NCBI RefSeq assembly: GCF_007747655.1
Contig: NZ_CP036274.1
Coordinates: 3,782,001-3,846,000 of the forward strand
Direction: 5' to 3'
From: Anatilimnocola aggregata
GTDB lineage: Bacteria > Planctomycetota > Planctomycetia > Pirellulales > Pirellulaceae
Length of the DNA: 64,000 nt
In this document: positions 175 to 15,146 of the stretch, piece after piece
Layout of the letters: every line of letters begins with the position of its first letter
How positions within the stretch are numbered: position 1 is the first letter of the stretch
Translations under genes and position numbers: made by a program
Notes under the pieces: generated by a model
Databases searched by the model: none
Told to the model about the DNA's origin: nothing
The model's input: only the letters and a program-made list of their open reading frames with translations

Positions 175-1083
175 CTATCGGCCGCGGTTCAGCAAGCTAC
201 GCTGATTGAGATAGTCGATAAAGAGTTCGGCCATCGATCGGCGGGTATCGACCAGAATCCGTTCGCAGCCATTGCGCTGGGCGAGGTCTTGAAATTCATC
301 GTTGAACTTTTTGAGAGCAGCCAGATAGCCGCGGCGCAGGTCTTCGGTCTGAGCCAGCAGTTCGTCTGGTGCTTCGAGCCCTACGAATTTCACCATGCCA
401 TCGAACTCAAACGTTGTCTCGTCGTGATGCAGCACTTGAAACAACACCACTTCATGCTTGTTATACCGCAGTCGCTGCAGGATCGGCTCGAGCGATTGCA
501 GATCGCCAAAGAAGTCGCTGAAGACCATGACGATTTCGCGGCGAGCCATTCGGCTGGCAACTTCGTTCAGGCAATTTGCCAGCGAGGTTTTTTCGACGGG
601 GTCGATCTTGTCCAAATGTTGCGTCATGCGAAACACTTGGCTCATCGAGTTGCTCGGCGGCACTACGCCGCGAATCTGGCTATCGAACGTCGTGAGAGAA
701 ACCTTGTCGCTTTGGCGAATGATCGAGTAACCGAGCATTGCTGCCATTTGCGATGCGTACAGCAGTTTCTGCTCGCCGCCGTCGCCATAGCGCATCGAGG
801 CGCTAACATCGAGCACTAAGTGGCAGACGAAGTTCGTTTCGAGCTCGTACTGCTTGACGAAATACTTCTCGCGCGTGAAATAGACGCGCCAATCGACGTG
901 CTTGGGATCGTCTCCCGGCACATACTCACGATGCCCGGCAAACTCCACCGCAAAACCAGCCAGCGGCGACTTGTGGGCGCCAGCGAGGTTGCCAATCACC
1001 AAGCCGCGCGGCTCGAAATGCCGGTCGGCGACGTGGCTGAGCACTTCGGGGTCGAGATAGCGGTTGAGGACGGAGTTGGACAT
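175..1083 (-). CDS. DUF58 domain protein (VWA-like), MoxR partner
   Basis: A 302-residue protein of the DUF58 family, the usual partner of MoxR AAA+ ATPases. Members carry a von Willebrand A-like fold and are thought to act with MoxR in assembling or activating envelope or metal-dependent complexes. Visible: the DUF58 core EFAGHREYVPGDDPKHVDWR (about residues 47-66) and a MIDAS-type D-x-S-x-S motif (LDVSASM, D92/S94/S96). No membrane segment is evident, so it is probably cytoplasmic or membrane-peripheral. The ATG at 1083 is the only early start before the conserved region. It is the last gene of the minus-strand operon, 105 nt downstream of the MoxR gene, and that gap is largely filled by a palindromic element. 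The family call is firm; the substrate is unknown. Confidence 0.93.
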   Translation of the reverse strand: MSNSVLNRYLDPEVLSHVADRHFEPRGLVIGNLAGAHKSPLAGFAVEFAGHREYVPGDDPKHVDWRVYFTREKYFVKQYELETNFVCHLVLDVSASMRYGDGGEQKLLYASQMAAMLGYSIIRQSDKVSLTTFDSQIRGVVPPSNSMSQVFRMTQHLDKIDPVEKTSLANCLNEVASRMARREIVMVFSDFFGDLQSLEPILQRLRYNKHEVVLFQVLHHDETTFEFDGMVKFVGLEAPDELLAQTEDLRRGYLAALKKFNDEFQDLAQRNGCERILVDTRRSMAELFIDYLNQRSLLNRGR

Positions 1084-1107
1084 GCGAATTGGTTATCGTA
1101 GCTTTTG

Positions 1108-1184
1108 GTAGCCCGACGCGTCAGCGACGGTGCAATGCCGATCTATATCGATTTCGAATCACCCTCGCTGACGCGTCGGGCTAC
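1108..1184. repeat. Dispersed palindromic element, 20-bp perfect arms
   Basis: The arms GTAGCCCGACGCGTCAGCGA (1108-1127) and its exact reverse complement (1165-1184) enclose a 37-nt loop. In RNA this would form a long stable hairpin inside the operon, between the MoxR stop (1189) and the DUF58 start (1083). There is no T-tract, so it is not a classic terminator. It resembles the short GTAGCCCGACGCGT-type palindromes I recall being scattered in planctomycete genomes, which makes a REP-like mobile repeat the best guess. It could also attenuate or stabilise the mRNA ahead of the DUF58 gene. Confidence 0.8.
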
Positions 1185-1188
1185 TTAC

Positions 1189-2220
1189 TCACGCAGCGGG
1201 TTTTTCGTACTTGCGGTCGGCCGGAATCGCTTGCAGCAGCATGTCGATCAGCTTTTCGCTGTTCAGGCCGTTCGCTTGGGCGGCATAATTGCCGGCCATG
1301 CGATGCCGGAGAGCCGGTTTAACGATGGCTTGTACGTCTTGCACGGTGGCATGATAGCGGCCGTAGAGGATCGCTCGTGCTTTGGCGGCCGTGACCAGGG
1401 TGAGGACACCGCGCGGGCCAGCGCCCCAGTTGACCCACTTGTTGACGAACTCAGGAGCTTCTTTGCTATTGGGACGGGTCGCTCGAACGAGTGCCCAGCA
1501 ATAGCCGAGTACCTGATCGCTAACCGGAACACGCGTGACGAGCTTCTGAAACTCGACGATCTCTTCGCCGGTGAGAACAGGCTGGATGTCGCCGAGTTGG
1601 CCGGAGGTAACGCGGCGGGCGACTTCCCATTCTTCCGCCGGGCTGGGGTAATCGACCTTCACGTACAGCAGGAAGCGGTCGAGCTGCGCTTCGGGCAGCG
1701 GGTACGTGCCTTCTTGCTCAAGTGGGTTTTGCGTGGCGAGCACGAAGAATGGAGCAGGGAGACCGTGGATCTTGCCGCCTGCCGAGACCTGCCGCTCTTG
1801 CATCGCTTCAAGCATGGCAGCTTGCGTCTTGGGCGGGGTACGGTTGATTTCGTCCGCGAGGAGCATGTTTGCAAAAATCGGCCCAGGCAAAAACTTGTAG
1901 CCGCGGTTGTGCGTTTCCGGATCTTCCTGAATCACCTCAGTGCCGGTGACGTCGCTCGGCATCAAGTCGGGAGTGAATTGAATTCGCTTGAACGACAAGT
2001 GGAGGGCTTTGGCGAGCGAACTAATGAGAAGCGTCTTGGCCAGACCAGGCACACCTTCCAGCAGCGCGTGACCCTTGGCAAACATCGAAATCAGCACTTG
2101 CTCGATCACGTCGCTTTGGCCAACGATCACTTTCGACAGTTCGTCGCGCAAGCGGTTGTAAGCCTTCTCGCACTTTTGCACGGCGGCGACATCGTTCTGT
2201 TGTTGCTGATCACTACTCAT
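1189..2220 (-). CDS. MoxR-family AAA+ ATPase
   Basis: A 343-residue MoxR-type AAA+ chaperone ATPase. The start is taken at ATG 2220 (MSSDQQQ...); the longer reading from 2229 would use a GTG three codons upstream. Visible: Walker A GVPGLAKT (residues 56-63), Walker B LLADEI (about 120-125) followed by the family signature NRTPPKTQAAMLEAMQE, and the sensor-1-like ATQNP. The length matches the family norm (about 320-350). MoxR proteins couple ATP hydrolysis to remodelling of VWA-domain partners; here the partners are plausibly the DUF58 protein downstream and the VWA membrane proteins upstream in the same operon. It lies 99 nt after the giant Ala/Lys/Glu-rich gene. Confidence 0.95.
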   Translation of the reverse strand: MSSDQQQQNDVAAVQKCEKAYNRLRDELSKVIVGQSDVIEQVLISMFAKGHALLEGVPGLAKTLLISSLAKALHLSFKRIQFTPDLMPSDVTGTEVIQEDPETHNRGYKFLPGPIFANMLLADEINRTPPKTQAAMLEAMQERQVSAGGKIHGLPAPFFVLATQNPLEQEGTYPLPEAQLDRFLLYVKVDYPSPAEEWEVARRVTSGQLGDIQPVLTGEEIVEFQKLVTRVPVSDQVLGYCWALVRATRPNSKEAPEFVNKWVNWGAGPRGVLTLVTAAKARAILYGRYHATVQDVQAIVKPALRHRMAGNYAAQANGLNSEKLIDMLLQAIPADRKYEKPAA

Positions 2221-2319
2221 ACGAATCACTCAACTATTAGGCGGGCGATAATCAGGAAAGGGATCTCTGTTCGGCTGCCGTTACTTGATTTCACAGCAGC
2301 CTCTATTTCACTCGAAAAA

Positions 2320-5300
2320 TTAGTCGATGCTTTCAAAGTAACGACGGAGCCGTTCTTCGTAGCCGCGTGGTGCTTTGCCACGAGCCTTGGCTTGAATCGC
2401 ACTTTGTAGGGCGGGAGGCAGCTTGGCGAACCAAGGTTCCTTTTCGAACTTCTGTGCCTTCGCGTCTGCATCTTGGTTGTTCTTCTCGCCGCGGCTGTCG
2501 CCCTGCTGGGTGGCTTCGTTTTGCAATTCGCCGGGCGCTTGATCGGGATTCTCCCCGGTCTCGCCACCCATGGGCGAACCACCCTTGGTGGCCTGGCTCG
2601 TTTGGCCGGGCATCGGCGGGCCTTGTCCCGGCATCGGTTGACCGGGCATTGGAGTCCCCTGCCCTGGTTGACCAGGCATCGGTGGGCCTTGTCCAGGCTG
2701 GCCGGGCATGGGTTGTCCTTGACCAGGTTGACCTTGGCCTGGCATTGGCTGGCCGTGACCGGGTTCGCCTTGAGCCAACTGACCCTGCAAAGCGGCTTCG
2801 GCAGCTGCTTCGATGGTAGCTTCGGCTTGGGCAAGTGCATCGGCACCGGCAATTTGCTGCGCGGTTGCTTCGGGATTGCTTGGCACCAGACCAGTACCCA
2901 AGTCAGTTGGCGCGGCTGGCGGCATGCCTGCAGCCGCTTGAGCCTGACCCATAGGTTTGGCTTGACCAGCAGGGGCCTGACCTGCGGGTGCTTGGCCCAT
3001 TGGTTTGCCTTGTGCCGCCTGACCCATTGGCTTGCCCGTAGCAGGTTGACCAGCGGGCGTTTGCGCAGCGGGTTGACCGGGTTGTGCTTCACCAGGTTTT
3101 CCTTCGGCTGGTGCGGCCTCTCCCATTGGCTGACCAGCTTCGCCCATGGGGGCTTCGCCGGCAGGCATTGGTTCGGCTAAGCGGGATGCAGCTTCCAGTG
3201 CTTCGCGAATTTCAGCCTTGGCCACTTCTTGTTGACTGGAGATTTCGGCAGCACCTACACCCGTCGCCTTTTGGGCTTCGGCAAACGACTCAGTTGCTCG
3301 TTGAAGAGCTTCGGCAGCGGCTAGCTGTTTGGCCGAGGGCTGCTTGGCGGCAGGCATCGGCTTGCCGGCTTGTCCCGCGGGCATGGGTTTACCGGCTTCG
3401 CCAGCCATCGGTTTGCCAGCTTCACCAGCCATTGGCTTACCGGCTTCGCCAGCGGGCATGGGTTCGCCGGCTTCTCCTGGCATGGGCTTCGCCGCTTCAC
3501 CAGCTGGAGAATCACCCTTGGCCAGCTGTTCGGCAGCTTGACCGATGGCATCACGGGCAGCCTGTTGGTCTTTAGCGAGTTCAGCGATGGCTTCAGCCAA
3601 ATCACGATCTCGACGAAGCTGTTGCTCGCGAGCGGCCAGATTCGCGGCGGCACGATCGAGACGCTGCGCAACTTCAGCGCGAGCTTCGGCCGCTTTAGCG
3701 GGATCAGCAGCTGCCGGTTTTCCTGCTTCGGGTTTGCCCGACTCCGGCTTGCCTGCCGGTTGTTCCCCCGGTTTCGCAGCGTCGTTAGCAGCCTTGGCTG
3801 CTTGTTGCAGGGCAGCCTGAGCACCGGCATCGACTTCACCGGCCTTTTCAGCGAGTTCACCGGCCGCTTTGCCTTCTTCGGCCAGTCCGGCTGCTTCTTG
3901 CTTGCCGAGTTCCTTTAGTGCTTCTTGAATCTTCTCACCGGCCTTGGCGAGTGCTTCACCGGCTTTCTTTTGAGCCTCGGCTGCACCAGCGGGCATACCC
4001 TTATCGAATTGCTCCTTGGCGGCGTCGGCTTGGGCAGCGGCGTCAGCAGCTGCTTTGCCAGCTTCCTGGGCAGCTTTCGCGGCCATGTCTCCCGGCTGAT
4101 CGCTGGCTTCGGCGGCGGCCTTCTCGGCCAGCGCTTCGGCTTCACCGGCTTTATCGCCAGCAGCTTTTTGGGCCATCGCGTCGGGCTTGCCGGCGGGTTG
4201 CTTGGCTGCTTCGGCTGCTTGAGCTTCGGCGGCTTCCATGGCTTTCGCGATTGCCTCGCGCGCTTCATTGCGGGCTGCTTCGGCCTTGGCAGGATCACCA
4301 CCGAGCGTTTCTTTGGCAGCTTCAGCAGCGGCAGCAGCAGCTTCCTTCAAAGCTTCAGCGACAGGGCCTTTGGTTTGCTTGGCGGCTTCGGCAGCTTTTT
4401 CGGCAGCCTCTTGTTGCTCGCCGGCAGCCTCGAGCGGAGTGTTAGCTTTGCCTTGAGCCAGATCGTTAGCTGCTTTGTCAGCCTGATTCTGTTCTTTCTT
4501 CACTTCCGCCACTTTTTCGGCCTGAGTCTTGGCTTCGGCAGCAGCCGCTTTGCCTTCGGCCTTAGCTTGTTCGGTTTGCGCTTCGCGAACTTTCTCTTTG
4601 GCTTTCTGGAGGCTGGCGATGGCTTCGGCCTTCGACGGCATCGGCTTCGCCGCGGCCTTTTCGACGGCCTCCAAAACCGCTTCGGTCTTTTCCAATTGTT
4701 CGCCGGCAATCTTGGCGAGTTCCTCGGCAGTTTTGCCAGCTTCCTTACGAAGTTCAGCAGCTGCCTGGGTTAGTTTTTCGGCAGCTTTCTCAGCGGCCTT
4801 GGCAGCATCCATAGCGGCCTGTTTGGCGGCGGGCTTGGCTGCTTCACCGGGCATTGGTTTGGCTTCGGCCAATTTCTTAGCGGCCTCTTCAGCAGGAGCC
4901 TTCGCTTCGGCTACTTTCTTGGAAGCTTCGGGTGCCGTGTTCTTCGTGCCTTCAGCAACCTTCTCGGTGACTTCTTTCACGTCGGCCTGTTTGGCTGCCA
5001 GCGCCTCAGCCTTTTCGGCCGTCAGTCCTTCTTCCTTCGCAGCAGCAGCGGCCTCTTTGGCGATTTCCTTCTCAGCAGCGGCAGCGCGTTCGAGTGCTTC
5101 GGCCGCCCGGGCCAGTTCGCCCACCTCGACGGCCTTCTCGCGGCGCATGGCATCGGCCAGCTGTTGTTCCACTTCGGCCTTGGCCTGAGCGATGGCTTCC
5201 TTAGCTTTTTCGGTAGCGTCCTGGCGAGCCTCGACTGCTTCGGGAGCCATTTTCTTATTGGCTTCGATTGCTTCTGCGACAGCCTCTTCAGCGGTTTGCA

Positions 5301-6675
5301 GTTTGTTCTCGACGGCGGAATTCAATTCAGCCTTCTCATCGGCCTTCTTCAAAATCTCGGCGACTTTCTCTTCTTGCTTCAGGGCTTCGGCAGGAGCTTT
5401 TTCCGCATGTTTGGTCGCTTCCTTCTGCTGCTCGGCGGCAGTTTCGAGGTCCTTCTTTAATTCTTGCAATTGCTTGACCTCAGCAGCCAGTTGATCGGCG
5501 CTCTTGTCGGCCTGTTCGAGGTCGAGTCCTTGTTCGATTTGCTTTTCGATCTGAGCCAGATCGCCGATGACTTTATTCTGTTCTTCCAGTGCTTCGGGCT
5601 TGTTGGTTTCGAACAAGTCGCGTCGAGCTTCCTGCGCAGCGGCCTTGGCGTCTTCGAGCAACGGTTGAGTGTTCGGGAAAGCACTTTGCAGAGCCTGCGC
5701 GAGCTTGCCGAGTTCCTTCTGCACTTCGAGTTGCTTGGCCGCGAGCTTATCGGCGGCTTGCGGATCGAGGGGCGACTTCTTAGTTTCTTCACGCAATTGT
5801 TCCTGCTTCTTCAGCATTTCGCGAACCATCTTTAGCGCCGCTTCGCGGTCGCTATCGATCAAACCTTGAGTTTCTTCGAGCTTATCGAGCAGCGCCTGCA
5901 AGCCGCGAATCACCACTTGTTGCGATTTGCCAGCGCCAGGAAAGTCCGCCTTGGCCAGTTGCATACTCGCGGCCTTCAATTCTTGATCGACCTGACCGGC
6001 GCGCAGGATTCGCAGACCAGCACTAGCTCCGGCACCAGCCTGGCCACCCCAAGTGCTGACGTCGTCGAGCGCGGCGACCAATTGGTAGTAGAGGCGTTGG
6101 ACATCGGCCTGATCTTCAATGGTCGAGAGTGCGAACTGATCGCGCTGCTGAGGTGGAAGGGCGGGAAGACCAACCGTCAGAGTCTGCGTTTTCACCTGCA
6201 TGTTGATTAACTCGCGGACTTGGGCCGAGAGCTTGGCGATTTGCATACGGCGGAAAAGCTTTTGCCGTTCAGCCATCAGCTGCACGACGACTTCGCGAAT
6301 GCGAGCGCGGGCTTTGTTGAAATTATCGAGCCGTTGCGCTTGTGTCCCTTCCTGGGCTTGTACTAGTAGCTGGACGATTTCTTCCATGTCGGCCTTCATC
6401 AGTTCATGGATGTTCCCCTTCATCGCTGCGATGTCTTTGTAAATCGGCAGCGCCTTGAGCCCGTTTTCGTCGAGCTGGCGAAGTTGAATGTCGAGCACAC
6501 CGGAGACGAGTTCTCCGGCCAGCGCCCGGGCTTTCTCCTGTGCTTGTTGCTTGTTGCGGAAGGAGTCTCCGTCGGCAGCGAGCGCGACAGTCCCCAGCAA
6601 TAGCGCGACAAGTCCGCCGGATGGCAGCCAGCTACGCAAACCACGAGCGACTTTCTCAGCAGCGATTCCTGTCAT
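2320..6675 (-). CDS. Giant exported Ala/Lys/Glu-rich coiled-coil protein
   Basis: A 1451-residue protein with no catalytic family that I recognise. Residues 1-34 form a signal peptide or single N-terminal anchor (hydrophobic GGLVALLLGTVALAA). Residues about 35-230 are a more ordinary helical domain. From about 230 to 1050 it is almost entirely Ala/Lys/Glu/Gln, typical of long coiled coil. The last third has Gly/Pro/Met/Gln repeats: GKPMAGEA-type copies near 1058-1108, GKPMGQA-type near 1208-1248 and PMPGQ-type near 1302-1372. It ends in a compact folded-looking tail (PWFAKLPPALQ...GYEERLRRYFES) that resembles the C-termini of other planctomycete MoxR-operon proteins. ATG 6675 overlaps the upstream stop by 4 nt (ATGA), so translation is coupled. 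It probably spans the periplasm as a scaffold for the operon's VWA membrane proteins; that role is inference. Confidence 0.9.
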   Translation of the reverse strand: MTGIAAEKVARGLRSWLPSGGLVALLLGTVALAADGDSFRNKQQAQEKARALAGELVSGVLDIQLRQLDENGLKALPIYKDIAAMKGNIHELMKADMEEIVQLLVQAQEGTQAQRLDNFNKARARIREVVVQLMAERQKLFRRMQIAKLSAQVRELINMQVKTQTLTVGLPALPPQQRDQFALSTIEDQADVQRLYYQLVAALDDVSTWGGQAGAGASAGLRILRAGQVDQELKAASMQLAKADFPGAGKSQQVVIRGLQALLDKLEETQGLIDSDREAALKMVREMLKKQEQLREETKKSPLDPQAADKLAAKQLEVQKELGKLAQALQSAFPNTQPLLEDAKAAAQEARRDLFETNKPEALEEQNKVIGDLAQIEKQIEQGLDLEQADKSADQLAAEVKQLQELKKDLETAAEQQKEATKHAEKAPAEALKQEEKVAEILKKADEKAELNSAVENKLQTAEEAVAEAIEANKKMAPEAVEARQDATEKAKEAIAQAKAEVEQQLADAMRREKAVEVGELARAAEALERAAAAEKEIAKEAAAAAKEEGLTAEKAEALAAKQADVKEVTEKVAEGTKNTAPEASKKVAEAKAPAEEAAKKLAEAKPMPGEAAKPAAKQAAMDAAKAAEKAAEKLTQAAAELRKEAGKTAEELAKIAGEQLEKTEAVLEAVEKAAAKPMPSKAEAIASLQKAKEKVREAQTEQAKAEGKAAAAEAKTQAEKVAEVKKEQNQADKAANDLAQGKANTPLEAAGEQQEAAEKAAEAAKQTKGPVAEALKEAAAAAAEAAKETLGGDPAKAEAARNEAREAIAKAMEAAEAQAAEAAKQPAGKPDAMAQKAAGDKAGEAEALAEKAAAEASDQPGDMAAKAAQEAGKAAADAAAQADAAKEQFDKGMPAGAAEAQKKAGEALAKAGEKIQEALKELGKQEAAGLAEEGKAAGELAEKAGEVDAGAQAALQQAAKAANDAAKPGEQPAGKPESGKPEAGKPAAADPAKAAEARAEVAQRLDRAAANLAAREQQLRRDRDLAEAIAELAKDQQAARDAIGQAAEQLAKGDSPAGEAAKPMPGEAGEPMPAGEAGKPMAGEAGKPMAGEAGKPMPAGQAGKPMPAAKQPSAKQLAAAEALQRATESFAEAQKATGVGAAEISSQQEVAKAEIREALEAASRLAEPMPAGEAPMGEAGQPMGEAAPAEGKPGEAQPGQPAAQTPAGQPATGKPMGQAAQGKPMGQAPAGQAPAGQAKPMGQAQAAAGMPPAAPTDLGTGLVPSNPEATAQQIAGADALAQAEATIEAAAEAALQGQLAQGEPGHGQPMPGQGQPGQGQPMPGQPGQGPPMPGQPGQGTPMPGQPMPGQGPPMPGQTSQATKGGSPMGGETGENPDQAPGELQNEATQQGDSRGEKNNQDADAKAQKFEKEPWFAKLPPALQSAIQAKARGKAPRGYEERLRRYFESID

Positions 6676-8684
6676 GGAGATTCTCCAATCCCGAGTTGAC
6701 GTTTGATAATGTCCGTAAGACGTTGTTCTGAGCGCTGGTCGGCCTCTGAAATGGCCGCCAGTACACCACTCTCATCCGAGATTTCGAGCACCAGCGGATC
6801 CGACTGATACCGTTCACCCGCAGGCTGGCCGGCTTCATTGTCACCGCGATAATCGACTACTTCCAACGTTATTTTGACCCGGTCCCCTTTGTTGAGCGCC
6901 AGAGACGATAGCGGCAAGGCGAAACTGGCATCCAGCGGCAACTTGCCCGCCCGGAGCGGTTCGCTGGTTGTCAGCAAAGGGAATTCTTTCTTTTCGACGG
7001 CCGTGGTCGCTTCGGCAGTTCCTGTCGTCTGCGCACTTTCTTCAGGCGCGGCAGCGGCTACGTTGTCGTCGGTACGTCGTTCGACTTCCGCGATCAGCTT
7101 GAGGGAAGCGATGCCGTAGTCATCGGCGGCACGATAGTGAACCACGGGCTCCGCAGTTGGCAGGACCACTTTGTGAACTACATCGGCTGCCGCAGTGGGA
7201 GGACGGTCGGGCTTGATGCGGACTGAACCGCGAATCGGCATCTCCAAGCTGAGGCCGTCTTCGTCGATCACTTGCAACTCGTAGCGGAACTCTTCCCGAA
7301 TGTTCTTCAGTGGCGTGTGGCCTTGCAGGTCGACCAGAGCCCACTTCGTACCGTGCCTATCCTGAACGGCCAGGTCGAGCCGCTCCGTTGTTTCGCGCTG
7401 ACGAAGGTTGATCCAGGCCGATTGCAGGCGTTTGCCGTTCGTGCAATCGAGCGCTATCTCCAGGGACGAACCGGAGAGCAAGGCAACTTGTCGTTGGCCC
7501 GCATCGGGCACTGCTTCCTGCTGGGCATATGCGGGAGGTACGATCTTGAGGGAAGGTTCGACCGCGGGAAGCGGAATCATGCTGATGGTGGCCGGGTCGG
7601 TCCAGGCATCACCAGCCACGAGCGAATAGCGAACACTTTCGAGCAGTCGAGGTTGCTGCACCAAAAAAAGCGACTTGTGCTCTTGGATGGCACCATCACT
7701 CTTGAGCTGCGCAGCGACTTGCGACGCCAACTCAGCGAGTGAGCTGCGCTGTTCAGTTTTTAGCACTTGAGCTGAATGCTCATCGGCATCAAAAGCTAGC
7801 AGCAGGGCTACCTGTTCGCGCCACGGCTGCGAAATATCAATCTCGTCATTCTTCGCCGCGGCTTCCATCATTTCGGCCGCGCGGCGCAGGCGATTGAGGC
7901 GCTCTTCGCGCGTAGCGGGTTTGAGGTCGAGCTGGGTGCGGGTGCGCGTGACGCCGGTGGCCGTCAGCGTGAGTGCAGCGGCCTCGGGTTTGTGGCCGCG
8001 GGTGAATACGGCAAACTCAAGCGGTCTTCCCTGAGCGGCCTTCATACTTTGCGGAGCACAACCTTCCACGTTCTCTTCCAGCACCTTTTTCTGATTGATG
8101 ACGATGCGCTCGATGGTGGTGGCCGTGGGATAATGCCGGCCGCCGAGCAGGAGACGATTGAAGAATGCGCCGGCATAGTGGGGATAGACAATGGCTGCAG
8201 CAATGAGCACCACGCCGGTGACCGCAAGCAACGCGGCGCGGCGAATCATCTGCGTGCGCGAAAAGCCTTCGAACACGTTCAACTGATTGCCGACATGGGC
8301 GACGTAGTCGATGACCGCGCCTTCCAGTTGCTGCGAACCCCAAGTACCCGCTTGAGTCGATTCGAACTGCAGGGCGGCAATCAGGTCGCTATCGATTTTT
8401 TGCTGCCGCTCGACGAGCAGGGCCATATCTTCAACTGACTCATGTTGTTGCAATAAGGGCCAGGTGAACTTGATGGCAGCCCACACGACCGCACCGATGG
8501 CAATTGCCATAACGACCAAACGTTGCGGCGCGGGAAGTTCGAACAACAAATCGAGCACCAGGACCGCGACCAACGCCCAGAGCGCGGCGATGACAAGCGC
8601 CGCACCCGCGGTGGCCACGCGCACGAGTGAACGGGCCCGCCTGAGCGAGGAAAGTTGTGTGCGTAATGTCGACAGACGCGTCAT
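6672..8684 (-). CDS. DUF4175-like transmembrane protein
   Basis: A 670-residue membrane protein. ATG 8684 (MTRLSTLRTQL...) is chosen because it overlaps the upstream stop as ATGA; an in-frame ATG at 8714 would add ten residues and a 34-nt overlap. There are two hydrophobic helices near the N-terminus (AALVIAALWALVAVLVLDLL and VVMAIAIGAVVWAAI) and a third around residue 150 (AALLAVTGVVLIAAAIVY). A long, probably extracytoplasmic region follows, with helical and beta-rich parts and no catalytic motif that I see. The arrangement matches DUF4175-type proteins found beside MoxR/VWA genes, but the match is by architecture, so the family name is tentative. It is co-translated with the giant coiled-coil protein downstream. 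Confidence 0.85.
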   Translation of the reverse strand: MTRLSTLRTQLSSLRRARSLVRVATAGAALVIAALWALVAVLVLDLLFELPAPQRLVVMAIAIGAVVWAAIKFTWPLLQQHESVEDMALLVERQQKIDSDLIAALQFESTQAGTWGSQQLEGAVIDYVAHVGNQLNVFEGFSRTQMIRRAALLAVTGVVLIAAAIVYPHYAGAFFNRLLLGGRHYPTATTIERIVINQKKVLEENVEGCAPQSMKAAQGRPLEFAVFTRGHKPEAAALTLTATGVTRTRTQLDLKPATREERLNRLRRAAEMMEAAAKNDEIDISQPWREQVALLLAFDADEHSAQVLKTEQRSSLAELASQVAAQLKSDGAIQEHKSLFLVQQPRLLESVRYSLVAGDAWTDPATISMIPLPAVEPSLKIVPPAYAQQEAVPDAGQRQVALLSGSSLEIALDCTNGKRLQSAWINLRQRETTERLDLAVQDRHGTKWALVDLQGHTPLKNIREEFRYELQVIDEDGLSLEMPIRGSVRIKPDRPPTAAADVVHKVVLPTAEPVVHYRAADDYGIASLKLIAEVERRTDDNVAAAAPEESAQTTGTAEATTAVEKKEFPLLTTSEPLRAGKLPLDASFALPLSSLALNKGDRVKITLEVVDYRGDNEAGQPAGERYQSDPLVLEISDESGVLAAISEADQRSEQRLTDIIKRQLGIGESP

Positions 8685-11179
8685 GAAAGTTTCAGCAGTT
8701 TGCGGAACAGCCATTCGCCTAGCATCAAGCCGACGACCAGCGTGAACCAGAGAGGCGTCGACCAGAGAGGTTGATTGCGAGTCAGTTTTTCGACGGTTGG
8801 CTCCGCGCGCAGATCGTTCACCAGGTTGTGCACGGTGGTCAGGTCGTAGGCTTTGCCGCCCGATTGCGCGGCGATTTCATTCTGCAGTTTTTCGTCGCGC
8901 ACTGCGCGGCGACGTTCAGCAGAGAGCGGCGTTACTTCGAACCGCTGTTCGTCGAACTTGCCAGTGACCGGGTCCTTTACACGCAGGCTGTATTCACCCA
9001 CGGCGAGCACCGGAATGCGAGCTTCGAAGACGCCCTTGCGAAGCATGGGGACGCGAATCGGACGAACTTCACCACCGCCGGGACCAGGAATCACCAACTC
9101 GGCTTCAAGCGTGCGGTCGGTCACATTTTCTTCATCGAGCGGTTCGAAGTTGACGTCGTAGGCTTCGACAGTGAGCGTGACTTTATCTTCCGCTCGATAC
9201 TGAGGCTGATCGAGTCGAGCGACGAACCGCTTATCGCTGCCAAGCGCGTGGCTCATGCCCAGGCGATAGATCAACTGCGACCAGAACTGCCGATAGTATT
9301 TCTCGCCATACTTCTTCCGCAGACGCCAAGTCTCGTTGAAGCTGAGGAAGACAACCTCGCCTTTGCCGTACTGACGCACGGAGATGAGAGGCTGAGGCGT
9401 TTTGCCATCGCGGCATTTGTCGGTGGGATGTTCGGCCAGAGCGAACGCTTGTTCGTGCAAGGCAGCGACCGGTTGATACCAAGGGAGCTTGCCCAGATTA
9501 TCCCAAGCCTTGGTGTTCTCGATTTCAGTGGCACCCAATTGCATGAATGGATAACGAGCGGCATGTGGCGTGAGGCGGGCACGAAACTCGGGGAACTCCG
9601 GAGCATCGCGGCGGTCGGCTTGCGGGTCGACAATCACGGGCAATAAATCGGCCAGTGGAGTTTGCTGAATCTCTTTGGGGCCGAAACGCGGGCCTGTAAT
9701 TACGACCAGACCACCACCGAGATTGCCGACAAACTCTTTCACCATTTCGCAGAAGCGATCGTTGAGTGCCGAACGGGGCATATCGTCAAGAAACAGCACG
9801 TCGTTGGCGAAGAATTCGCTTCGCTTGGGTGTCAACGTGGGCAGGAACAGCACGTTTGCATCGCGAACCCGTGGATCGGAGGAGGCAAGGAAGGTGCGAA
9901 AGCCGTCCATGCCGACGAGTTTATCGCGATGGAATACTTCTTTGATGAATCGCCATTCCCAGGTGGGTTCATAAGCGACATACATCAGGCGAAGATAGTC
10001 ATCGATGATGTTGACTTGCCGCAGTGCATGGTTGTTCTGGTCGACAATTTCACCTTCGAGCGGTTCGACGGTCGCCGTGAATTCGAAGCGGCCCGATTCC
10101 TCGGGAGTAAAGGGAATCTCGAGCGTTTCGACGCCACTTTGCAGGGCAACGGTTCGCTGACCAACTTGAAACTCGGGTAAAAGCGCGGCCGAGTCTCCGC
10201 CAACCTTGCGACCACTGACGCGAACCGTGACGTTCTGTCCTTGCAGTCCGCTTTGACGCAACTTTACGAGGACACTGCTCCGCTCGGCTTTCTTCATCTT
10301 GGGGTCGGTTTGCAAATCGACCGCTAGATCAACTGCCTCAGTCGCACCAACACCCACGGCGTAGACTGGTACGCCCAACTTGGCGAGAGGGGTATTATCG
10401 CCAATGCCCACGGGGGCAGCGCCCGCGTTATGGGCAAAGTCGCTCACGAAGACGACGCCTGCCAAACGACCTGAACCGAATTGTTGACTAGTCTCTTGTA
10501 GCACAGCTCCGAGCGCCGTGACCTGACCCTTGGTCGTCAGTTGCTCAGCGAGCCAGGCACCCGAAAGCTTCTTTTCGGATTGATTGCCAACTTCGCTTAG
10601 TTTGCGAAGTTGGCTCGTGGTGTTGCCATCGAAGACGAAAGCTTCGAGTTGCACGTTGTGCTTGTCCTGCAACTGCTGCAAGGTGTTTTCGTTCTCTTTG
10701 CTCAACCAAGACTGCACGTATTGCATGCGAGTCGGGGTTGTGAAGCTATTGGCGGCGACCGGAGTTTCGCCCGGGGCAGCAGCGGGAGCCTCTTTTAGGC
10801 CCGTTGAAGTGGCCAATGCGGTGCGCTGCGATTCGGGGAGTTGATCGCCGATGGCCATGCTGTCGGTGCCATCGAATACGACATAAACCTGTGGCTGATG
10901 TTTACGCGTGACATGCATCTGTAGCACAGGGTCGGCCAGAGTCAGAAGCAGAATTGCCAGGAGTAAGCCGCGGCAAATGGCGAGCACCCAGCGAGTTGGT
11001 GCCTTCGGACCATTCTGCAGGCGGAGATAGAAGAACATCGAGAGGACAATGAGCCCAGCTGCGGCGAGAAAGACCCAGAACGGACCGTCCTGCGCCCAAG
11101 GCGCAGCGAGAGCGATGCCGATCTCGTCGATCGACGTCACCCCATCCAATCCCAGAAACCAGCCCCACCAGCGATTCAT
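8681..11179 (-). CDS. VWA/glutamine-amidotransferase-like membrane protein
   Basis: An 832-residue membrane protein. Two helices lie near the N-terminus (FWVFLAAAGLIVLSMFFYL, about 34-52, and VLAICRGLLLAILLLTLADP, about 67-87), and a last helix is at the extreme C-terminus (TLVVGLMLGEWLFRKLL). After the second helix comes a VWA-like start (VVFDGTDSM), where the MIDAS D-x-S-x-S reads D-G-T-D-S; the Ser-to-Thr change may preserve metal binding. A class I glutamine amidotransferase-like region (GNLGGGLVVITGP...) in the middle lacks an obvious catalytic Cys, so it is probably a non-enzymatic fold. A beta-sandwich segment follows before the final helix. This layout is common in planctomycete MoxR operons. 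It is 46 nt from the upstream BatA/VWA gene. Confidence 0.87.
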   Translation of the reverse strand: MNRWWGWFLGLDGVTSIDEIGIALAAPWAQDGPFWVFLAAAGLIVLSMFFYLRLQNGPKAPTRWVLAICRGLLLAILLLTLADPVLQMHVTRKHQPQVYVVFDGTDSMAIGDQLPESQRTALATSTGLKEAPAAAPGETPVAANSFTTPTRMQYVQSWLSKENENTLQQLQDKHNVQLEAFVFDGNTTSQLRKLSEVGNQSEKKLSGAWLAEQLTTKGQVTALGAVLQETSQQFGSGRLAGVVFVSDFAHNAGAAPVGIGDNTPLAKLGVPVYAVGVGATEAVDLAVDLQTDPKMKKAERSSVLVKLRQSGLQGQNVTVRVSGRKVGGDSAALLPEFQVGQRTVALQSGVETLEIPFTPEESGRFEFTATVEPLEGEIVDQNNHALRQVNIIDDYLRLMYVAYEPTWEWRFIKEVFHRDKLVGMDGFRTFLASSDPRVRDANVLFLPTLTPKRSEFFANDVLFLDDMPRSALNDRFCEMVKEFVGNLGGGLVVITGPRFGPKEIQQTPLADLLPVIVDPQADRRDAPEFPEFRARLTPHAARYPFMQLGATEIENTKAWDNLGKLPWYQPVAALHEQAFALAEHPTDKCRDGKTPQPLISVRQYGKGEVVFLSFNETWRLRKKYGEKYYRQFWSQLIYRLGMSHALGSDKRFVARLDQPQYRAEDKVTLTVEAYDVNFEPLDEENVTDRTLEAELVIPGPGGGEVRPIRVPMLRKGVFEARIPVLAVGEYSLRVKDPVTGKFDEQRFEVTPLSAERRRAVRDEKLQNEIAAQSGGKAYDLTTVHNLVNDLRAEPTVEKLTRNQPLWSTPLWFTLVVGLMLGEWLFRKLLKLS

Positions 11180-11225
11180 CGAGTTATAATTTTCCCTGCA
11201 AGTGCAGCAACAGACTCAAACAAAA

Positions 11226-13799
11226 CTAAACGGCCACCTGCGGCCGCAACGCAGGCCACGACAAGACGACCATCTCGGCAAGCAACAGCAGCAACACCGC
11301 GAGCGCCAGATACCACCAACTTGTTTGGCCGCGAATCGCGGCTCCAGCCAAGCTAATGTCCTCGCCTGGTTCAACCCACCGAAGCGAACTTCCCGCGGTC
11401 AGTTCTTCGAACTTCTCGCGCGTAATCGGCTGCAGTTCCGATTCATCGGCTTCACCATTGACCACGATGGGAATATCCCAGACGGGTTTGGCGTCCGTGG
11501 GTTGTGGGCCTTCAGCATTCGGATCGTGACGATAACCGGCGACGCGATACACGCCTCGTTGATACAGGCCGTGCAACGTGATGCCGCGCAAGTCACCGCT
11601 GATAAAACCGATATCGAGCGATTCCGGGTCGAGTTGACGCGGACGAGTGAGCGTGACTGCCAAATCGTGCTCGTTCGAGGGAACGGGCAATGTGAGTTGT
11701 TCGAGTGGTTGATAGTTCCGCCGCGTGAGTGTCGATCGCGTCATGTTACGCAGCAAACGGTCGAACATCAGAATCGCGTTCGTCTTGGGCAAGGTATTCC
11801 ACGAGGACAGTAATCCAGTGCCCACGAACAGAATCTCACCTTGGCCCCGTTTGCCCGCAACCAGGAAAGGTGTTTGTGCGGGATCATCGAAGCGAGCCAG
11901 GATTCGCGGCAATTGCTGCTGCAGCAAACTGTCGACTCGTTGTGCGCGCAAAGCGGGATCATCGGGAAGAGCTTCGTCGCCCCCGGTACTAACGGAATTC
12001 CCCGTGGCCCAGGTGAGCCAGCGCGGCTGGAGTTCGGCCAACTTAGCTTCGTCTTGTTCCTGCGACTCTTGATCGGCCGAGGTGATCTCGCCCGCGGCTT
12101 GCTTGGTCGTGAATTCCTCGCGACGCTTGGCAGCGGCCTGCACGAAAGTCAATTCTTCTTCCAGGTTTTTGCGAGCGGCAGCGGCCAATTGAGCGGTCGT
12201 ATCGGCCGACGTATCGCTGCCAACTGCTTTGAAGAAGAACGGTTCGGAATAGAGATCGCGCAGTTCCGTTTCGCTAATCGACGACAATTGAAACAGCTCA
12301 TCGCCCGAGAGGCTTTCGAACGAAATGAAGAACGGACGCGTATTCGCGCCAGCAACTTCCGGTACTTCGCCCACCGTTTCGAGCAATGGCAGCGGCAAGA
12401 TTCCGTCGCCACCTTGCCAGGCCAATTCTTGCCAGCGCGCCGGATCAAAATCGGCTCCAGCAGCAATCACCAGCCGGCCACCTTGGCGAACGTAATCGCG
12501 CAGGAGGGAAACAACTTCCTCCGACTGTGGCTCTTTCAAACCGGCGAGCACAACCAAGCGAGCGTCTTTGAGCACTTCTTGATCGAGCTCGTTCTGAGTC
12601 AGGTGGCGAACCTTCACTAATTGCCGCGGGGCATCGCTACGCGAGGTCTTCGGTGCCAGCAGTTTTCGCAAATGCCGAGTCTCGCCCAATTGATTGCGTC
12701 CCGGATCTTCTGCCGAACCGAATTGATCGACAAAGACCACCGGCAGGCCAGCAACGATTGGCAGGGCGAGAAAACGCTCGTTGTCGGCAGCGAGGGCGTC
12801 GTTGGCTTGAATCTCGGCCTTAAGGGCCACAAAAATCGGCCGATCAGGCTCAGGAACTTCGGTAAGTGTATTGAAGACGTACTCGAACTCAACCTCTTTG
12901 CTGCCCGAACCGGGTTCGATGGCTACTGTCCGCTCGCCAATCACGGTATCGCCGTACGACAGCTTGACTTGAATGTCTTGCCGGGCGACGCCGCCCTGAT
13001 GTTGCAGCACCACTTGGATCGTCGTGGGCGTCTCGATATCGGCAAGGCCATCTTGCACCCGCAAATCGGCAATCCAAGTATTCTCCCAATCAGCTGCGGT
13101 GCCAGCCGGTGCTACAGCAACAAGTTGCCAGTCTTGTAGTTTCTTCAAAGTTTCGGCCGAGCGAAGATCGCGCCAATTTGTGCCTTGCTGATCGCTGAAG
13201 ACGACGACTCGTTTGGCAAGTTCGGGTGACGACTCACTTGCCCGTTGCACGTCGTTCACTGCGCGGAGCATGCTCGCGCTGCGATCGACGAGTTCAAGTT
13301 TGCCGATGGCTTCGAGAGCGGCGTCCTTGGTGTCGTAAGGATCAGGACTATAACCCTCGCGCGAGCCGCACGCCGGCAGGACCGAGATCTTGCTACCGGT
13401 GGGGAGTTGATCGATGAGCCGGCGAGCACGGTCTTTGGCTTTATCAAGCAAGGTGCCGTCGAGCCCTTCGTAGCCCATGCTCAGGCTGTTATCGACCACG
13501 AGAATCGCATGCAGTGGTTGGCGCTCATCGACCCCGCTGTTGCCACCCCGGGCGAAAAAAGGACGAGCAAGCACTAGACCGAAGAGAAAGACAGCAATGG
13601 TACGCATCACCAGCAGGATGATGTCGCGCAGCTGCAACATTTTGCGGTTTCGTTGCATGGCTTCCTTGAGGAAGTCCATAGCCGCCCATTGCACCACACG
13701 ATAGCGCCGCCGATTGAGCAAGTGAATGATCACCGGCCCCGTGGCAAAGAGTGCACCGGCAGCTGCAAATTGCCAGGCGGTTAACGACAAAAACGACAT
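11226..13799 (-). CDS. BatA-type VWA membrane protein
   Basis: An 857-residue protein with the BatA N-terminal module: helix one (FAAAGALFATGPVIIHLL), the conserved LNRRR turn, then FLKEAMQRNRKMLQLRD and helix two (IILLVMRTIAVFLFGLVLARPF). A VWA domain follows directly with an intact MIDAS (VVDNSLSMG, D-x-S-x-S). The central region contains a GATase-like segment (RDYVRQGGRLVIAAGADFDP), and the C-terminus ends in a membrane helix (WYLALAVLLLLLAEMVVL). BatA proteins are Bacteroides-aerotolerance-type envelope proteins that work with MoxR; in Planctomycetes the function is undetermined. ATG 13799 lies 1 nt after the stop of the prenyltransferase-repeat gene, which indicates one transcript. Confidence 0.92.
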   Translation of the reverse strand: MSFLSLTAWQFAAAGALFATGPVIIHLLNRRRYRVVQWAAMDFLKEAMQRNRKMLQLRDIILLVMRTIAVFLFGLVLARPFFARGGNSGVDERQPLHAILVVDNSLSMGYEGLDGTLLDKAKDRARRLIDQLPTGSKISVLPACGSREGYSPDPYDTKDAALEAIGKLELVDRSASMLRAVNDVQRASESSPELAKRVVVFSDQQGTNWRDLRSAETLKKLQDWQLVAVAPAGTAADWENTWIADLRVQDGLADIETPTTIQVVLQHQGGVARQDIQVKLSYGDTVIGERTVAIEPGSGSKEVEFEYVFNTLTEVPEPDRPIFVALKAEIQANDALAADNERFLALPIVAGLPVVFVDQFGSAEDPGRNQLGETRHLRKLLAPKTSRSDAPRQLVKVRHLTQNELDQEVLKDARLVVLAGLKEPQSEEVVSLLRDYVRQGGRLVIAAGADFDPARWQELAWQGGDGILPLPLLETVGEVPEVAGANTRPFFISFESLSGDELFQLSSISETELRDLYSEPFFFKAVGSDTSADTTAQLAAAARKNLEEELTFVQAAAKRREEFTTKQAAGEITSADQESQEQDEAKLAELQPRWLTWATGNSVSTGGDEALPDDPALRAQRVDSLLQQQLPRILARFDDPAQTPFLVAGKRGQGEILFVGTGLLSSWNTLPKTNAILMFDRLLRNMTRSTLTRRNYQPLEQLTLPVPSNEHDLAVTLTRPRQLDPESLDIGFISGDLRGITLHGLYQRGVYRVAGYRHDPNAEGPQPTDAKPVWDIPIVVNGEADESELQPITREKFEELTAGSSLRWVEPGEDISLAGAAIRGQTSWWYLALAVLLLLLAEMVVLSWPALRPQVAV

Positions 13800-13800
13800 G

Positions 13801-14961
13801 CTACTGGCCCGCCTTTGCCTTTTGGCGGAAGCTCTCGATCTTCCCTTCCTGCAAAATGGGAAGGTAGCGATTCGGAATAGCCAGAATGAAGCAGCCCACG
13901 CTAGTCGCGTATAGCTGGCCCTCGCGGCCGCCTACGTGGCCGTTGGTTTTCGCGCCGTGATCGTGCCATGCTCCGTGATTGGCTGCATTCTTGTCGTCCA
14001 TCACCTGCGCGGTGACGAGATACTCGCGCAGCAGCGGATAACATTCTTTCCACGGATCGCCATTCACTTGATACAAAGCCTGGCCGACGTAATACAGCGT
14101 GTAGGCATCGAAGGGCATGCTGCCGTTTCGTTCGCGGGCTTTGGGAACTTCCTTCACCGCAGCCGCGATGACGTCCATATTCTTGCCGATTCGCCAGTCG
14201 TCGTACTGTCCGAACTCCTGCATGCAAACCACGCCGGCTGCAGCCATGGCAATGGTGCCACCACCACCACCGCGGCTATACGTGAATTGGCCGGGCATTT
14301 TCATTTGCTCAGCTTCTGATGCGCGGCGATCACCCTTTGCCGCGTAATGATCGCGGACGCTCTTGATCGCCTGATCGATGACTTCGGGTGGAACTTCCAG
14401 TCCGCTATCGACGGCCGAACGAAGCGCTTTCGCCTGCATCACGGCGAGACTCAGATCGTGACCATTCTTTTGGCGATGAGCTTTGTAATCCCAACCACCG
14501 TCGTCGCACTGGACGTTGGCGATGAGTTTCAAAGCGCCATCCAGAACGCGATTAAGCCGGCGATCGCGACTAGCTGTCATGCCATGAGCCTGGCCGAGCA
14601 CAAAGGTCGCCAAACCGTGGTTGTACATATCTCGCTGGGCGTCAGAAACGTTCAGCAAGCCCGAAGGCTTGGCATGGCTGACTACGTATTCCAATGCCCG
14701 ATCGACTTCGCGGCCATATTTGCCACGACCGGGAGCATGACCGGCGGCCAGGAACGCCAAGGCCCCCATGCTAACAAGCCCCAGGTCGTTCGAACCCCAG
14801 TTTCCTTCGGCACCCTGATTCCGGGCTAACCATTCGAGCCCCCGGTCGAGAGCAGCTTCACTCAGCGGGGTGATTTCATCGTCTTGCCCCCACGCGCGAG
14901 CGAGTGGAGCAAAGAGCATTGCCAGCGAGAGAATGGCCAAAGCCAGCTGACGTCGCAACAT
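13801..14961 (-). CDS. Exported prenyltransferase/squalene-oxidase repeat protein
   Basis: A 386-residue protein with a clear signal peptide (MLRRQLALAILSLAMLFAPLARA). ATG 14961 is preferred over the upstream in-frame start at 15027 because it begins the signal peptide and has GAGAGG about 8 nt upstream. The mature part has alpha/alpha-barrel repeats of the squalene-cyclase/prenyltransferase type: ALDRGLEWLARNQGAEGNWG, ANVQCDDGGWDYK and a GQALYQVNG...W segment. The DxDD cyclase motif is absent, so it is unlikely to be a terpene cyclase; such exported repeat proteins are frequent in planctomycetes and are of unknown function. It is the first gene of the seven-gene operon, so the promoter should lie in 14962-15146. 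Confidence 0.88.
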   Translation of the reverse strand: MLRRQLALAILSLAMLFAPLARAWGQDDEITPLSEAALDRGLEWLARNQGAEGNWGSNDLGLVSMGALAFLAAGHAPGRGKYGREVDRALEYVVSHAKPSGLLNVSDAQRDMYNHGLATFVLGQAHGMTASRDRRLNRVLDGALKLIANVQCDDGGWDYKAHRQKNGHDLSLAVMQAKALRSAVDSGLEVPPEVIDQAIKSVRDHYAAKGDRRASEAEQMKMPGQFTYSRGGGGGTIAMAAAGVVCMQEFGQYDDWRIGKNMDVIAAAVKEVPKARERNGSMPFDAYTLYYVGQALYQVNGDPWKECYPLLREYLVTAQVMDDKNAANHGAWHDHGAKTNGHVGGREGQLYATSVGCFILAIPNRYLPILQEGKIESFRQKAKAGQ

Positions 14962-15146
14962 GCAGTTGCCTCTCGATGGGAGGGAGTAGGGGCGAACGGT
15001 GGGGAACAGGCTATTGTCATTAGCCAACGGTTACTTTGCTATGGCTGAAGGGCGAATTTCGTTACACGCCTGCCGAAAAAACCGACAAGAACCGGCGATT
15101 GCCAATCGTGAACGTAAGAATCGACCGGGAAGTGACTTGAGGTGCG

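What the first reader, a model, noticed from the sequence alone, without database searches (positions are those of the whole stretch)
175..14961. Seven-gene MoxR/DUF58/VWA operon with three VWA paralogues and a 1451-residue scaffold-like protein
Seven same-strand genes with overlapping or 1-nt junctions at several points join a prenyltransferase-repeat protein, BatA/VWA protein, VWA/GATase protein, DUF4175-like protein, a giant Ala/Lys/Glu coiled coil, MoxR and DUF58. The MoxR/DUF58 core is known; the giant low-complexity partner and the first gene are not explained. The set reads as one membrane machine with a cytoplasmic ATPase and a long periplasmic rod.
Basis: partly seen in the sequence, partly recalled or inferred. 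Interest (0 to 1): 0.7.

Follow-up and report, generated by a model that had tools for sequence, protein, structure and literature searches.

The report
Planctomycete MoxR operon, split periplasmic partner
Seven neighbouring genes in a planctomycete probably build one cell-envelope machine, and its huge, puzzling protein looks like the detached second half of a membrane protein that relatives make in one piece.

Summary
The seven genes are real and keep order and strand in most planctomycete relatives found. Ten genomes whose locus lacks neighbours all encode a giant elsewhere; in seven of the ten it sits beside the gene-4 protein.

The giant has a signal-peptide-like start, a conserved helical domain, a variable low-complexity middle and a conserved 40-residue tail (W..LP..Y..Y). 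A related tail ends one-piece DUF4175-like proteins, or small exported proteins beside such genes, across the phylum. Membrane protein, arm and tail thus look like one functional chain cut at different points; this genome shows three cuts. The first gene encodes an alpha/alpha toroid that often neighbours DUF4175-like genes (38 of 62 genomes, chance about 0.7).

Best reading: a planctomycete variant of the MoxR/DUF58/BatA envelope machine, with a cytoplasmic MoxR-DUF58 motor acting on a periplasmic assembly. Anatomy well supported; mechanism inferred. New variant of a known kind.

The parts
13801..14961 (-). Gene 1: exported-looking alpha/alpha-toroid protein (squalene-cyclase/prenyltransferase-like fold); TTG alternative start at 15027
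   Evidence: AlphaFold2 pLDDT 91.5; Foldseek to squalene-hopene cyclase E 1.9e-5, TMq 0.49; orthologue in 40 of 42 loci with room
11226..13799 (-). Gene 2: BatA-type double-anchor membrane protein with VWA domain
   Evidence: PF07584 43.5 bits, TIGR02226 57.5 bits, VWA_2 33.9 bits; DxSxS within the first 260 residues in 43 of 48 rows
8681..11179 (-). Gene 3: membrane protein, paralogue of gene 2, with degenerate VWA and conserved central region
   Evidence: HMM-HMM match to gene 2, 96.7%, E 4.7e-10; 187 columns at least 85% conserved over 62 rows
6672..8714 (-). Gene 4: DUF4175-like protein, three N-terminal membrane helices and tandem beta-sandwich domains; likely true start at the internal ATG at 8684
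   Evidence: AlphaFold2 pLDDT 90.5; Foldseek E down to 7.5e-8 to Ig-like/macroglobulin arrays, but TMq only 0.11-0.20; KD segments 40-58, 66-84, 160-178
2320..6675 (-). Gene 5: the giant: signal-peptide-like start, conserved helical domain (about residues 35-330), variable Ala/Lys/Glu and Gly/Pro/Gln middle, conserved C-terminal tail
   Evidence: 4-nt overlap with gene 4 in 34 of 40 orthologous pairs
2323..2445 (-). C-terminal tail module of the giant (W...LP..Y..YF..D)
   Evidence: 31 of 31 complete giants; 28 of 31 end in D/E; profile match to tails of fused and small exported proteins
1189..2229 (-). Gene 6: MoxR AAA+ ATPase
   Evidence: PF07726 206.6 bits, PF17863 lid 52 bits
175..1083 (-). 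Gene 7: DUF58 protein with VWA, no membrane segment
   Evidence: PF01882 138.8 bits, VWA_2 43.6 bits; DxSxS in 19 of 19 rows; following genes not conserved in the stretches held
15147..19379 (-). Occasional upstream neighbour: membrane-anchored TPR/PQQ beta-propeller protein, anti-sigma-like N terminus (the last recalled, no call)
   Evidence: PQQ_2 74 bits; directly upstream of gene 1 in 10 of 35 loci with room, by my count
19376..20044 (-). Occasional upstream neighbour: ECF sigma factor of the Rhodopirellula/Verrucomicrobium type
   Evidence: TIGR02989 116 bits, just under its cut-off of 124.55; 8 of 30 loci with room

Best explanation
This is a planctomycete variant of the MoxR-DUF58-BatA envelope machine. 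Shown here: seven co-conserved genes; the giant carries a tail related to the one that ends one-piece DUF4175-like proteins, or sits on small exported proteins beside them, so genes 4 and 5 look like one functional chain (membrane anchor, beta-sandwich domains, helical arm, tail) cut in two; gene 1 is a toroid protein that travels with this chain. Inferred: MoxR hexamers in the cytoplasm work with the soluble VWA protein DUF58. They remodel or set the state of an inner-membrane complex of gene 2, gene 3 and gene 4. That complex displays the long arm of gene 5 in the periplasm, where the arm's tail docks on a partner (the toroid, a metal-site VWA domain of gene 2, peptidoglycan or the outer membrane). 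The biological role is most likely assembly or maintenance of the cell envelope.
For: Order conserved over 62 loci. Gene 4-giant overlap of exactly 4 nt in 34 of 40 pairs. In ten genomes where the locus is incomplete or broken up, all encode a giant; gene 4 and giant are side by side in 7 of 10 (five with the 4-nt overlap; two more). In 149 genomes the strong matches to gene 4 (E <= 1e-37), giant domain (E <= 1e-90) and toroid (E <= 1e-120) fall in the same six. Tail: 50 of 2677 ORFs, 0 in shuffled tails; 37 giants, 5 fusions with gene 4, 7 beside a gene-4-like gene, 1 two genes away. Non-giant against giant tail profiles 97.4%, E 1.3e-11; six control C-termini at most 0.7%. Leaving out the 15 genomes that have a row in the tail alignment or hold the operon, 25 of 75 tail matches lie within 10 kb of a gene-4-like match, 0.5 expected. 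Own genome: three loci, three cuts. Envelope role: RL3499 of Rhizobium, an MRP-subfamily MoxR, is reported as important for membrane integrity and cell morphology (passage in PMC3893208; title of the original paper seen as a reference).
Against: No transcription, localisation or interaction data. The regex for the tail was written after seeing both tail types, and the rows in the profile comparison were chosen with it. Some genomes left share a genus with alignment rows. 50 of its 75 tail matches have no gene-4-like match near. Outside the six genomes, matches to the giant's N-terminal domain are weak (E 5.5e-7 to 9.3e-4) and could be compositional. In 3 of 10 exception genomes gene 4 and giant lie apart, on different contigs. 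Deleting bat genes gave no detected phenotype in Leptospira biflexa (PMC3557215, abstract and passages). Pfam does not call gene 4 DUF4175.
Confidence: 0.6

Rival explanations
1. The giant is an independent scaffold or periplasmic rod recruited to a MoxR operon, with no descent from a DUF4175-like chain; tail similarity is convergence on a common docking peptide.
For: Its N-terminal domain has no convincing match in the one-piece proteins: best weak hits E 5.5e-7, E 2e-7 in L132. Small tail proteins exist as separate exported-looking genes, so the giant could be a grown tail protein rather than a split half. Gene 4 and giant lie apart in 3 of 10 exception genomes.
Against: Gene 4-giant coupling is the tightest in the operon and the pair stays together in 7 of 10 exception genomes; cut points vary along one domain order, even within one genome.
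Confidence: 0.25
2. MoxR and DUF58 serve as a chaperone pair that inserts a metal or matures another membrane enzyme (as NorQ/NorD or CoxD/CoxE do), and the periplasmic genes are the substrate or bystanders.
For: Well-studied MoxR-VWA pairs do this (NorQ/NorD passages, PMC9976466). The DxSxS part of the VWA metal site is present in DUF58 (19 of 19) and BatA (43 of 48).
Against: No enzyme with a known cofactor domain is among the conserved genes; genes after DUF58 are not conserved in the stretches held. An MRP-type MoxR is the one linked to membrane integrity.
Confidence: 0.15
3. A MoxR-VWA conflict (defence) system of the bpMoxR type.
For: MoxR also passes the PF20030 bpMoxR cut-off (46.7 against 27 bits); a PQQ beta-propeller gene lies upstream.
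Against: AAA_3 fits far better (206.6 bits); no VWA-propeller fusion; no effector domain found in the seven genes; stable content with 70-93% identity in MoxR and 39-66% in gene 3, unlike the hypervariable effectors described for such systems (PMC7159879 abstract and passages).
Confidence: 0.03

Closest known systems
Rhizobium leguminosarum RL3499-RL3502 operon (MRP-subfamily MoxR)
   Same: MoxR operon linked in print to membrane integrity and cell morphology (passage in PMC3893208; the original paper is not held). That it holds DUF58 and BatA-like proteins is recalled.
   Different: No giant tail protein or toroid gene that I know of; sequences not compared here.
Bacteroides aerotolerance (Bat) operon
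   Same: MoxR, DUF58 and BatA-type VWA membrane proteins (passages in PMC11834572 and PMC5700661).
   Different: No TPR or SH3 Bat protein in the seven genes; MoxR is sixth, not first; toroid, DUF4175-like protein and giant added.
DUF4175 family (PF13779)
   Same: One-piece relative L116 (with tail) matches at E 4.4e-5. AdvA of Acinetobacter, a division protein with this domain and two predicted membrane helices, is in the one paper found (PMC7481262 passages).
   Different: Gene 4 itself gives no match up to E 0.1; L116 is below the cut-off (22.1 against 27.3 bits).
Squalene-hopene cyclase / prenyltransferase / complement TED toroids
   Same: Alpha/alpha-toroid fold.
   Different: No conserved DxDD (pattern in 3 of 44 rows) and no CxEQ thioester (0 of 44).
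TolA/TonB-type periplasmic force transducers
   Same: Low-complexity helical or Pro-rich arm ending in a conserved C-terminal part; TolA domain II composition varies likewise between clades (PMC12204202 passages).
   Different: Giant has only an N-terminal hydrophobic stretch resembling a signal peptide; no homology test to TolA was made; the motor would be an AAA+ ATPase, not a proton channel.

Membership tests
MoxR AAA+, MRP subfamily | AAA_3 core and lid over Pfam cut-off | tested here: met
   206.6 and 52 bits
MoxR AAA+, MRP subfamily | DUF58 and VWA genes beside it | tested here: met
   conserved in relatives
MoxR AAA+, MRP subfamily | Sequence falls in the MRP clade of the MoxR tree | not tested
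   no tree with reference subfamilies was built
Bat operon | BatA-type double-anchor VWA protein | tested here: met
   PF07584 and TIGR02226 over cut-off
Bat operon | TPR/SH3 proteins (BatC-BatE) in the operon | tested here: not met
   no such domain in the seven genes; the upstream PQQ protein has one TPR below cut-off
Bat operon | MoxR first in the operon | tested here: not met
   MoxR is gene 6 of 7; it leads in paralogous loci such as L103 and L107
RL3499-RL3502 type operon | Orthology of all four genes | not tested
   Rhizobium genes were not fetched; paper not held
DUF4175 (PF13779) | Match over cut-off in gene 4 | tested here: not met
   no match to E 0.1; none over cut-off in the whole genome
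DUF4175 (PF13779) | Match in a one-piece relative | tested here: inconclusive
   L116: E 4.4e-5, 22.1 bits, cut-off 27.3; L117: no match
Terpene cyclase/prenyltransferase | Alpha/alpha-toroid fold | tested here: met
Terpene cyclase/prenyltransferase | Catalytic DxDD (cyclase) | tested here: not met
   pattern in 3 of 44 rows, not conserved
Alpha-2-macroglobulin TED | CxEQ thioester | tested here: not met
   0 of 44 rows
bpMoxR ternary conflict system | VWA fused to a beta-propeller | tested here: not met
   propeller is on a separate upstream gene without a VWA match

The most novel reading that the evidence does not exclude
Planctomycetes carry a phylum-wide, undescribed periplasmic arm-and-tail device: a DUF4175-like membrane protein whose helical arm ends in a fixed docking tail, cut into one, two or three proteins in different loci. 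The MoxR-DUF58 motor loads or releases the acidic end of the tail on the metal site of a periplasmic VWA domain (gene 2), making an ATP-powered trans-envelope tether that does a Tol-Pal-like job.
Probability: 0.15. Interest if true: 0.8.

Novelty: new variant of a known kind. Interest (0 to 1): 0.5.

Why it matters
MoxR/DUF58/BatA operons are widespread and, as far as I know, have no agreed mechanism. Planctomycetes offer a natural dissection: the same chain is cut at different points, so the pieces that must work together are named, and a 40-residue tail is pinpointed as the constant end of an otherwise free-running arm. That gives small, direct tests (does the tail bind gene 1, gene 2's VWA domain or the wall?) in a phylum known for unusual envelopes. 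It also turns a 1451-residue 'giant' and a 'prenyltransferase' annotation, both likely to mislead, into parts of one system.

Tried and rejected
Coiled-coil rod: hydrophobic periodicity in residues 331-1000 peaks at 3.6-3.7, not 3.5; length varies more than twofold; not adopted as shown. Enzyme reading of gene 1: no conserved cyclase or thioester motif. An eighth downstream gene: no gene after DUF58 is conserved in the few kb held. The sigma/PQQ pair as core: PQQ directly upstream in 10 of 35 loci (my count; one search says 12 of 35, which includes L095, where it lies 4.5 kb upstream, and L066, where it lies behind DUF58), sigma in 8 of 30, so an occasional neighbour. Promoter scan: 3 sites against 5.2 expected, uninformative. 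Plasmids: no match to gene 4. Tail and chain outside Planctomycetota: not searched. Literature: ten searches listed no paper on this planctomycete operon or on the tail; in the P. limnophila essential-gene paper the words MoxR, von Willebrand, DUF58 and prenyltransferase do not occur in the main text; its tables could not be read here.

Weak points of my own tests: the tail regex came after inspection; a first version (W, two residues, LP) missed all 31 complete giants, which have three residues there, and was widened. Match lists are or may be cut at the best places, so counts from them are lower bounds; of the four own-genome tail matches counted only three were listed. Chance figures assume 5-Mb genomes. 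In one search, five of the 38 adjacent genomes hold the operon itself. In 'within 300 nt' counts negative distances and is not used.
Full report
WHAT IS THERE. Seven genes run on the minus strand from 14961 (or 15027) down to 175. In transcription order they are: an exported-looking toroid protein (G1), a BatA-type VWA membrane protein (G2), its paralogue with a degenerate VWA (G3), a DUF4175-like membrane protein (G4), the 1451-residue giant (G5), MoxR (G6) and DUF58 (G7). Junctions are tight from G1 to G5 (1 nt, 46 nt, a 34-nt or 4-nt overlap, a 4-nt overlap) and loose for the last two (90 and 105 nt). The 105-nt gap between MoxR and DUF58 holds an inverted repeat that spans 77 nt and belongs to a family with 129 near-copies in the genome. 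Upstream lie a PQQ/TPR protein and an ECF sigma factor overlapping by ATGA.

CONSERVATION. A scan of public genomes with G3 gave 62 loci; record titles name planctomycetes except for four that are unnamed bacteria or probably mislabelled bins (L043, L054, L061, L071). Profile annotation shows the same order and strand, G1-G2-G3-G4-G5-G6-G7, in the loci that hold the genes. Counting only loci with room: G1 40 of 42, G2 43 of 48, G4 45 of 52, giant 36 of 42, MoxR 19 of 26, DUF58 16 of 25. Some misses are genomes in which G3 stands alone (L040, L063, L065, L084); in L059 and L086 MoxR does not follow the giant, and in L073 and L074 DUF58 does not follow MoxR in the stretch held. I searched for the giant in the ten genomes whose locus lacks G2, G4 or the giant, and in three others: all 13 encode it, with one strong match each (E 1.2e-97 or better). 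In the ten exceptions, G4 and giant are side by side in seven: five with the 4-nt overlap (L150-L153, L155), two by neighbouring matches on one contig (genomes of L050 and L082). In three they lie on different contigs (genomes of L041, L078, L081); in the last of these MoxR is near the giant. Among 149 genomes drawn from the phylum, strong matches to G4, giant and G1 fall in the same six genomes.

THE GIANT. A3 aligns 27 N-termini: a hydrophobic stretch like a signal peptide, then about 290 conserved residues. A hydrophobic stretch before residue 75 is present in 34 of 37 long rows; 5 of 37 have another such stretch after residue 120. The middle is 31% Ala, 16% Glu, 13% Lys (331-1000), then an Ala/Gly/Pro/Gln linker (1001-1380). 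Complete orthologues in the 62 loci run from 649 to 1527 aa. The last 40 residues are the constant part: 31 of 31 complete giants have W...LP..Y..Y, and 28 of 31 end in Asp or Glu (exceptions L066, L068, L087).

WHY IT LOOKS LIKE A SPLIT CHAIN. The single-sequence search with G4 hit open frames of 1200-1500 aa in other planctomycetes. Reading two of them (L116, 1427 aa; L117, 1411 aa) showed a G4-like start, a long low-complexity middle, and a C terminus resembling the giant's. A pattern search over 2677 ORFs of at least 150 aa in the loci then examined found 50 tails and none in shuffled tails: 37 in giants, 5 in one-piece G4 proteins, 7 in separate proteins with signal-like starts within 600 nt of a G4-like gene (178 to 1117 aa), and one two genes away from a G4-like gene. 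Not every long G4-like protein has the tail: in L124, L127, L129, L131, L132 and L133 the long protein lacks it and the small neighbour has it; others (L125, L126, L130, L134-L137) showed no match to the pattern in the stretch fetched. Profile comparison of the 13 non-giant tails with the giants' tails gives 97.4%, E 1.3e-11; C-termini of six other genes of the operon give at most 0.7%. Spacing is fixed in the alignment of 21 tails: LP-18-Y-6-Y. A tail profile finds matches in 115 of 149 genomes at E <= 0.01. Leaving out the 15 genomes used to build it or holding the operon, 25 of 75 listed matches lie within 10 kb of a G4-like match, in 24 of 49 genomes, with 0.5 expected; some of these genomes share a genus with an alignment row. 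Two thirds of these tail matches are not near a detected G4-like gene; G4 diverges fast, so the single-sequence search may miss partners, but some tails may serve other systems. The window's genome itself shows three cuts: G4 plus giant (this operon); a 1198-aa G4-like protein plus a 227-aa tail protein next to a toroid gene (L159; tail read); and an 829-aa G4-like protein, a 620-aa protein and a 363-aa tail protein behind a MoxR-DUF58-BatA-G3 set (L107, L172).

THE TOROID. G1 folds with high confidence into an alpha/alpha toroid (pLDDT 91.5), about equally near to squalene-hopene cyclase, RabGGTase beta, GH76 mannanase and complement C3 (TM-score by query length 0.45-0.57). It keeps no cyclase or thioester motif. 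Its family is in 128 of 149 genomes at E <= 1e-40, and in 38 of 62 genomes with both matches listed it lies within 9 kb of a G4-like match, against 0.7 expected (five of the 38 hold this operon). So the toroid travels with the chain well beyond this operon. It may be a binding protein rather than an enzyme (inference).

PARALOGUES. The genome has 14 AAA_3 matches, 12 of them strong. I fetched the surroundings of the other 13. Several are MoxR-DUF58-BatA loci with MoxR in front and a G3-like gene further on (L101 with L114, L103, L104, L107); none carries a match to the giant's N-terminal domain or to the toroid profile in the stretch fetched. The window's operon is the rearranged one, with MoxR and DUF58 at the end.

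TOPOLOGY. Hydropathy gives no membrane segment in MoxR or DUF58, two near the start of G3, and three in G4. With positive-inside reading (inference), the VWA parts of G2 and G3, the beta domains of G4, the giant and the toroid are periplasmic, and only MoxR and DUF58 are cytoplasmic. A split between G4 and giant keeps topology only if the second half has its own export signal, and it appears to have one.

MECHANISM. Shown: the parts, their coupling, the constant tail. Inferred: MoxR with DUF58 drives a change in the membrane complex, and the arm and tail pass it to a periplasmic dock. In NorQ/NorD the VWA metal site is thought to bind acidic residues of the target (passages of PMC9976466). The giant's nearly constant acidic end and the DxSxS of BatA (43 of 48 rows) make gene 2 one candidate dock; this is a guess with a precedent, not a result. 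Envelope maintenance is favoured because an MRP-type MoxR has that phenotype in Rhizobium (passage in PMC3893208), although reports on Bacteroides, Riemerella and Francisella stress oxidative, heat and other stress tolerance (passages of PMC11834572), and deletion of bat genes in Leptospira biflexa showed no phenotype (PMC3557215, abstract and passages).

VERDICT. It is a variant of a known kind of operon, with a new and testable description of its puzzling parts. Ten library searches listed no paper on the tail motif or its variable cutting; subscription papers are mostly not in that library.

Noticed in passing
window 1108-1184: A 25-nt inverted repeat (96% complementary) between MoxR and DUF58 belongs to a REP-like family: 129 matches with up to 2 mismatches in the genome, many in facing pairs by eye, 0 for the reversed pattern.
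   Followed up: partly
L159 10119-15552 (own genome 8,896,119-8,901,552): A second DUF4175-like + small tail protein + toroid locus; no MoxR match in the fetched stretch.
   Followed up: partly
own genome, 12 strong MoxR places: Twelve strong MoxR ATPases in one genome, several leading paralogous DUF58-BatA-G3 loci.
   Followed up: partly
window 15147-20044: ECF sigma factor and a membrane-anchored TPR/PQQ protein overlapping by ATGA; in L066 the PQQ gene lies behind DUF58 instead.
   Followed up: partly
window 25846-31734 and 33506-40213: Two very large repetitive surface-protein-like ORFs (1962 and 2235 aa), the second with dockerin-like repeats near its end (by eye).
   Followed up: no
tail matches without a nearby G4-like match: 50 of 75 tail matches in the genomes kept for one search have no detected G4-like neighbour; they may mark diverged partners or other uses of the tail.
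   Followed up: no
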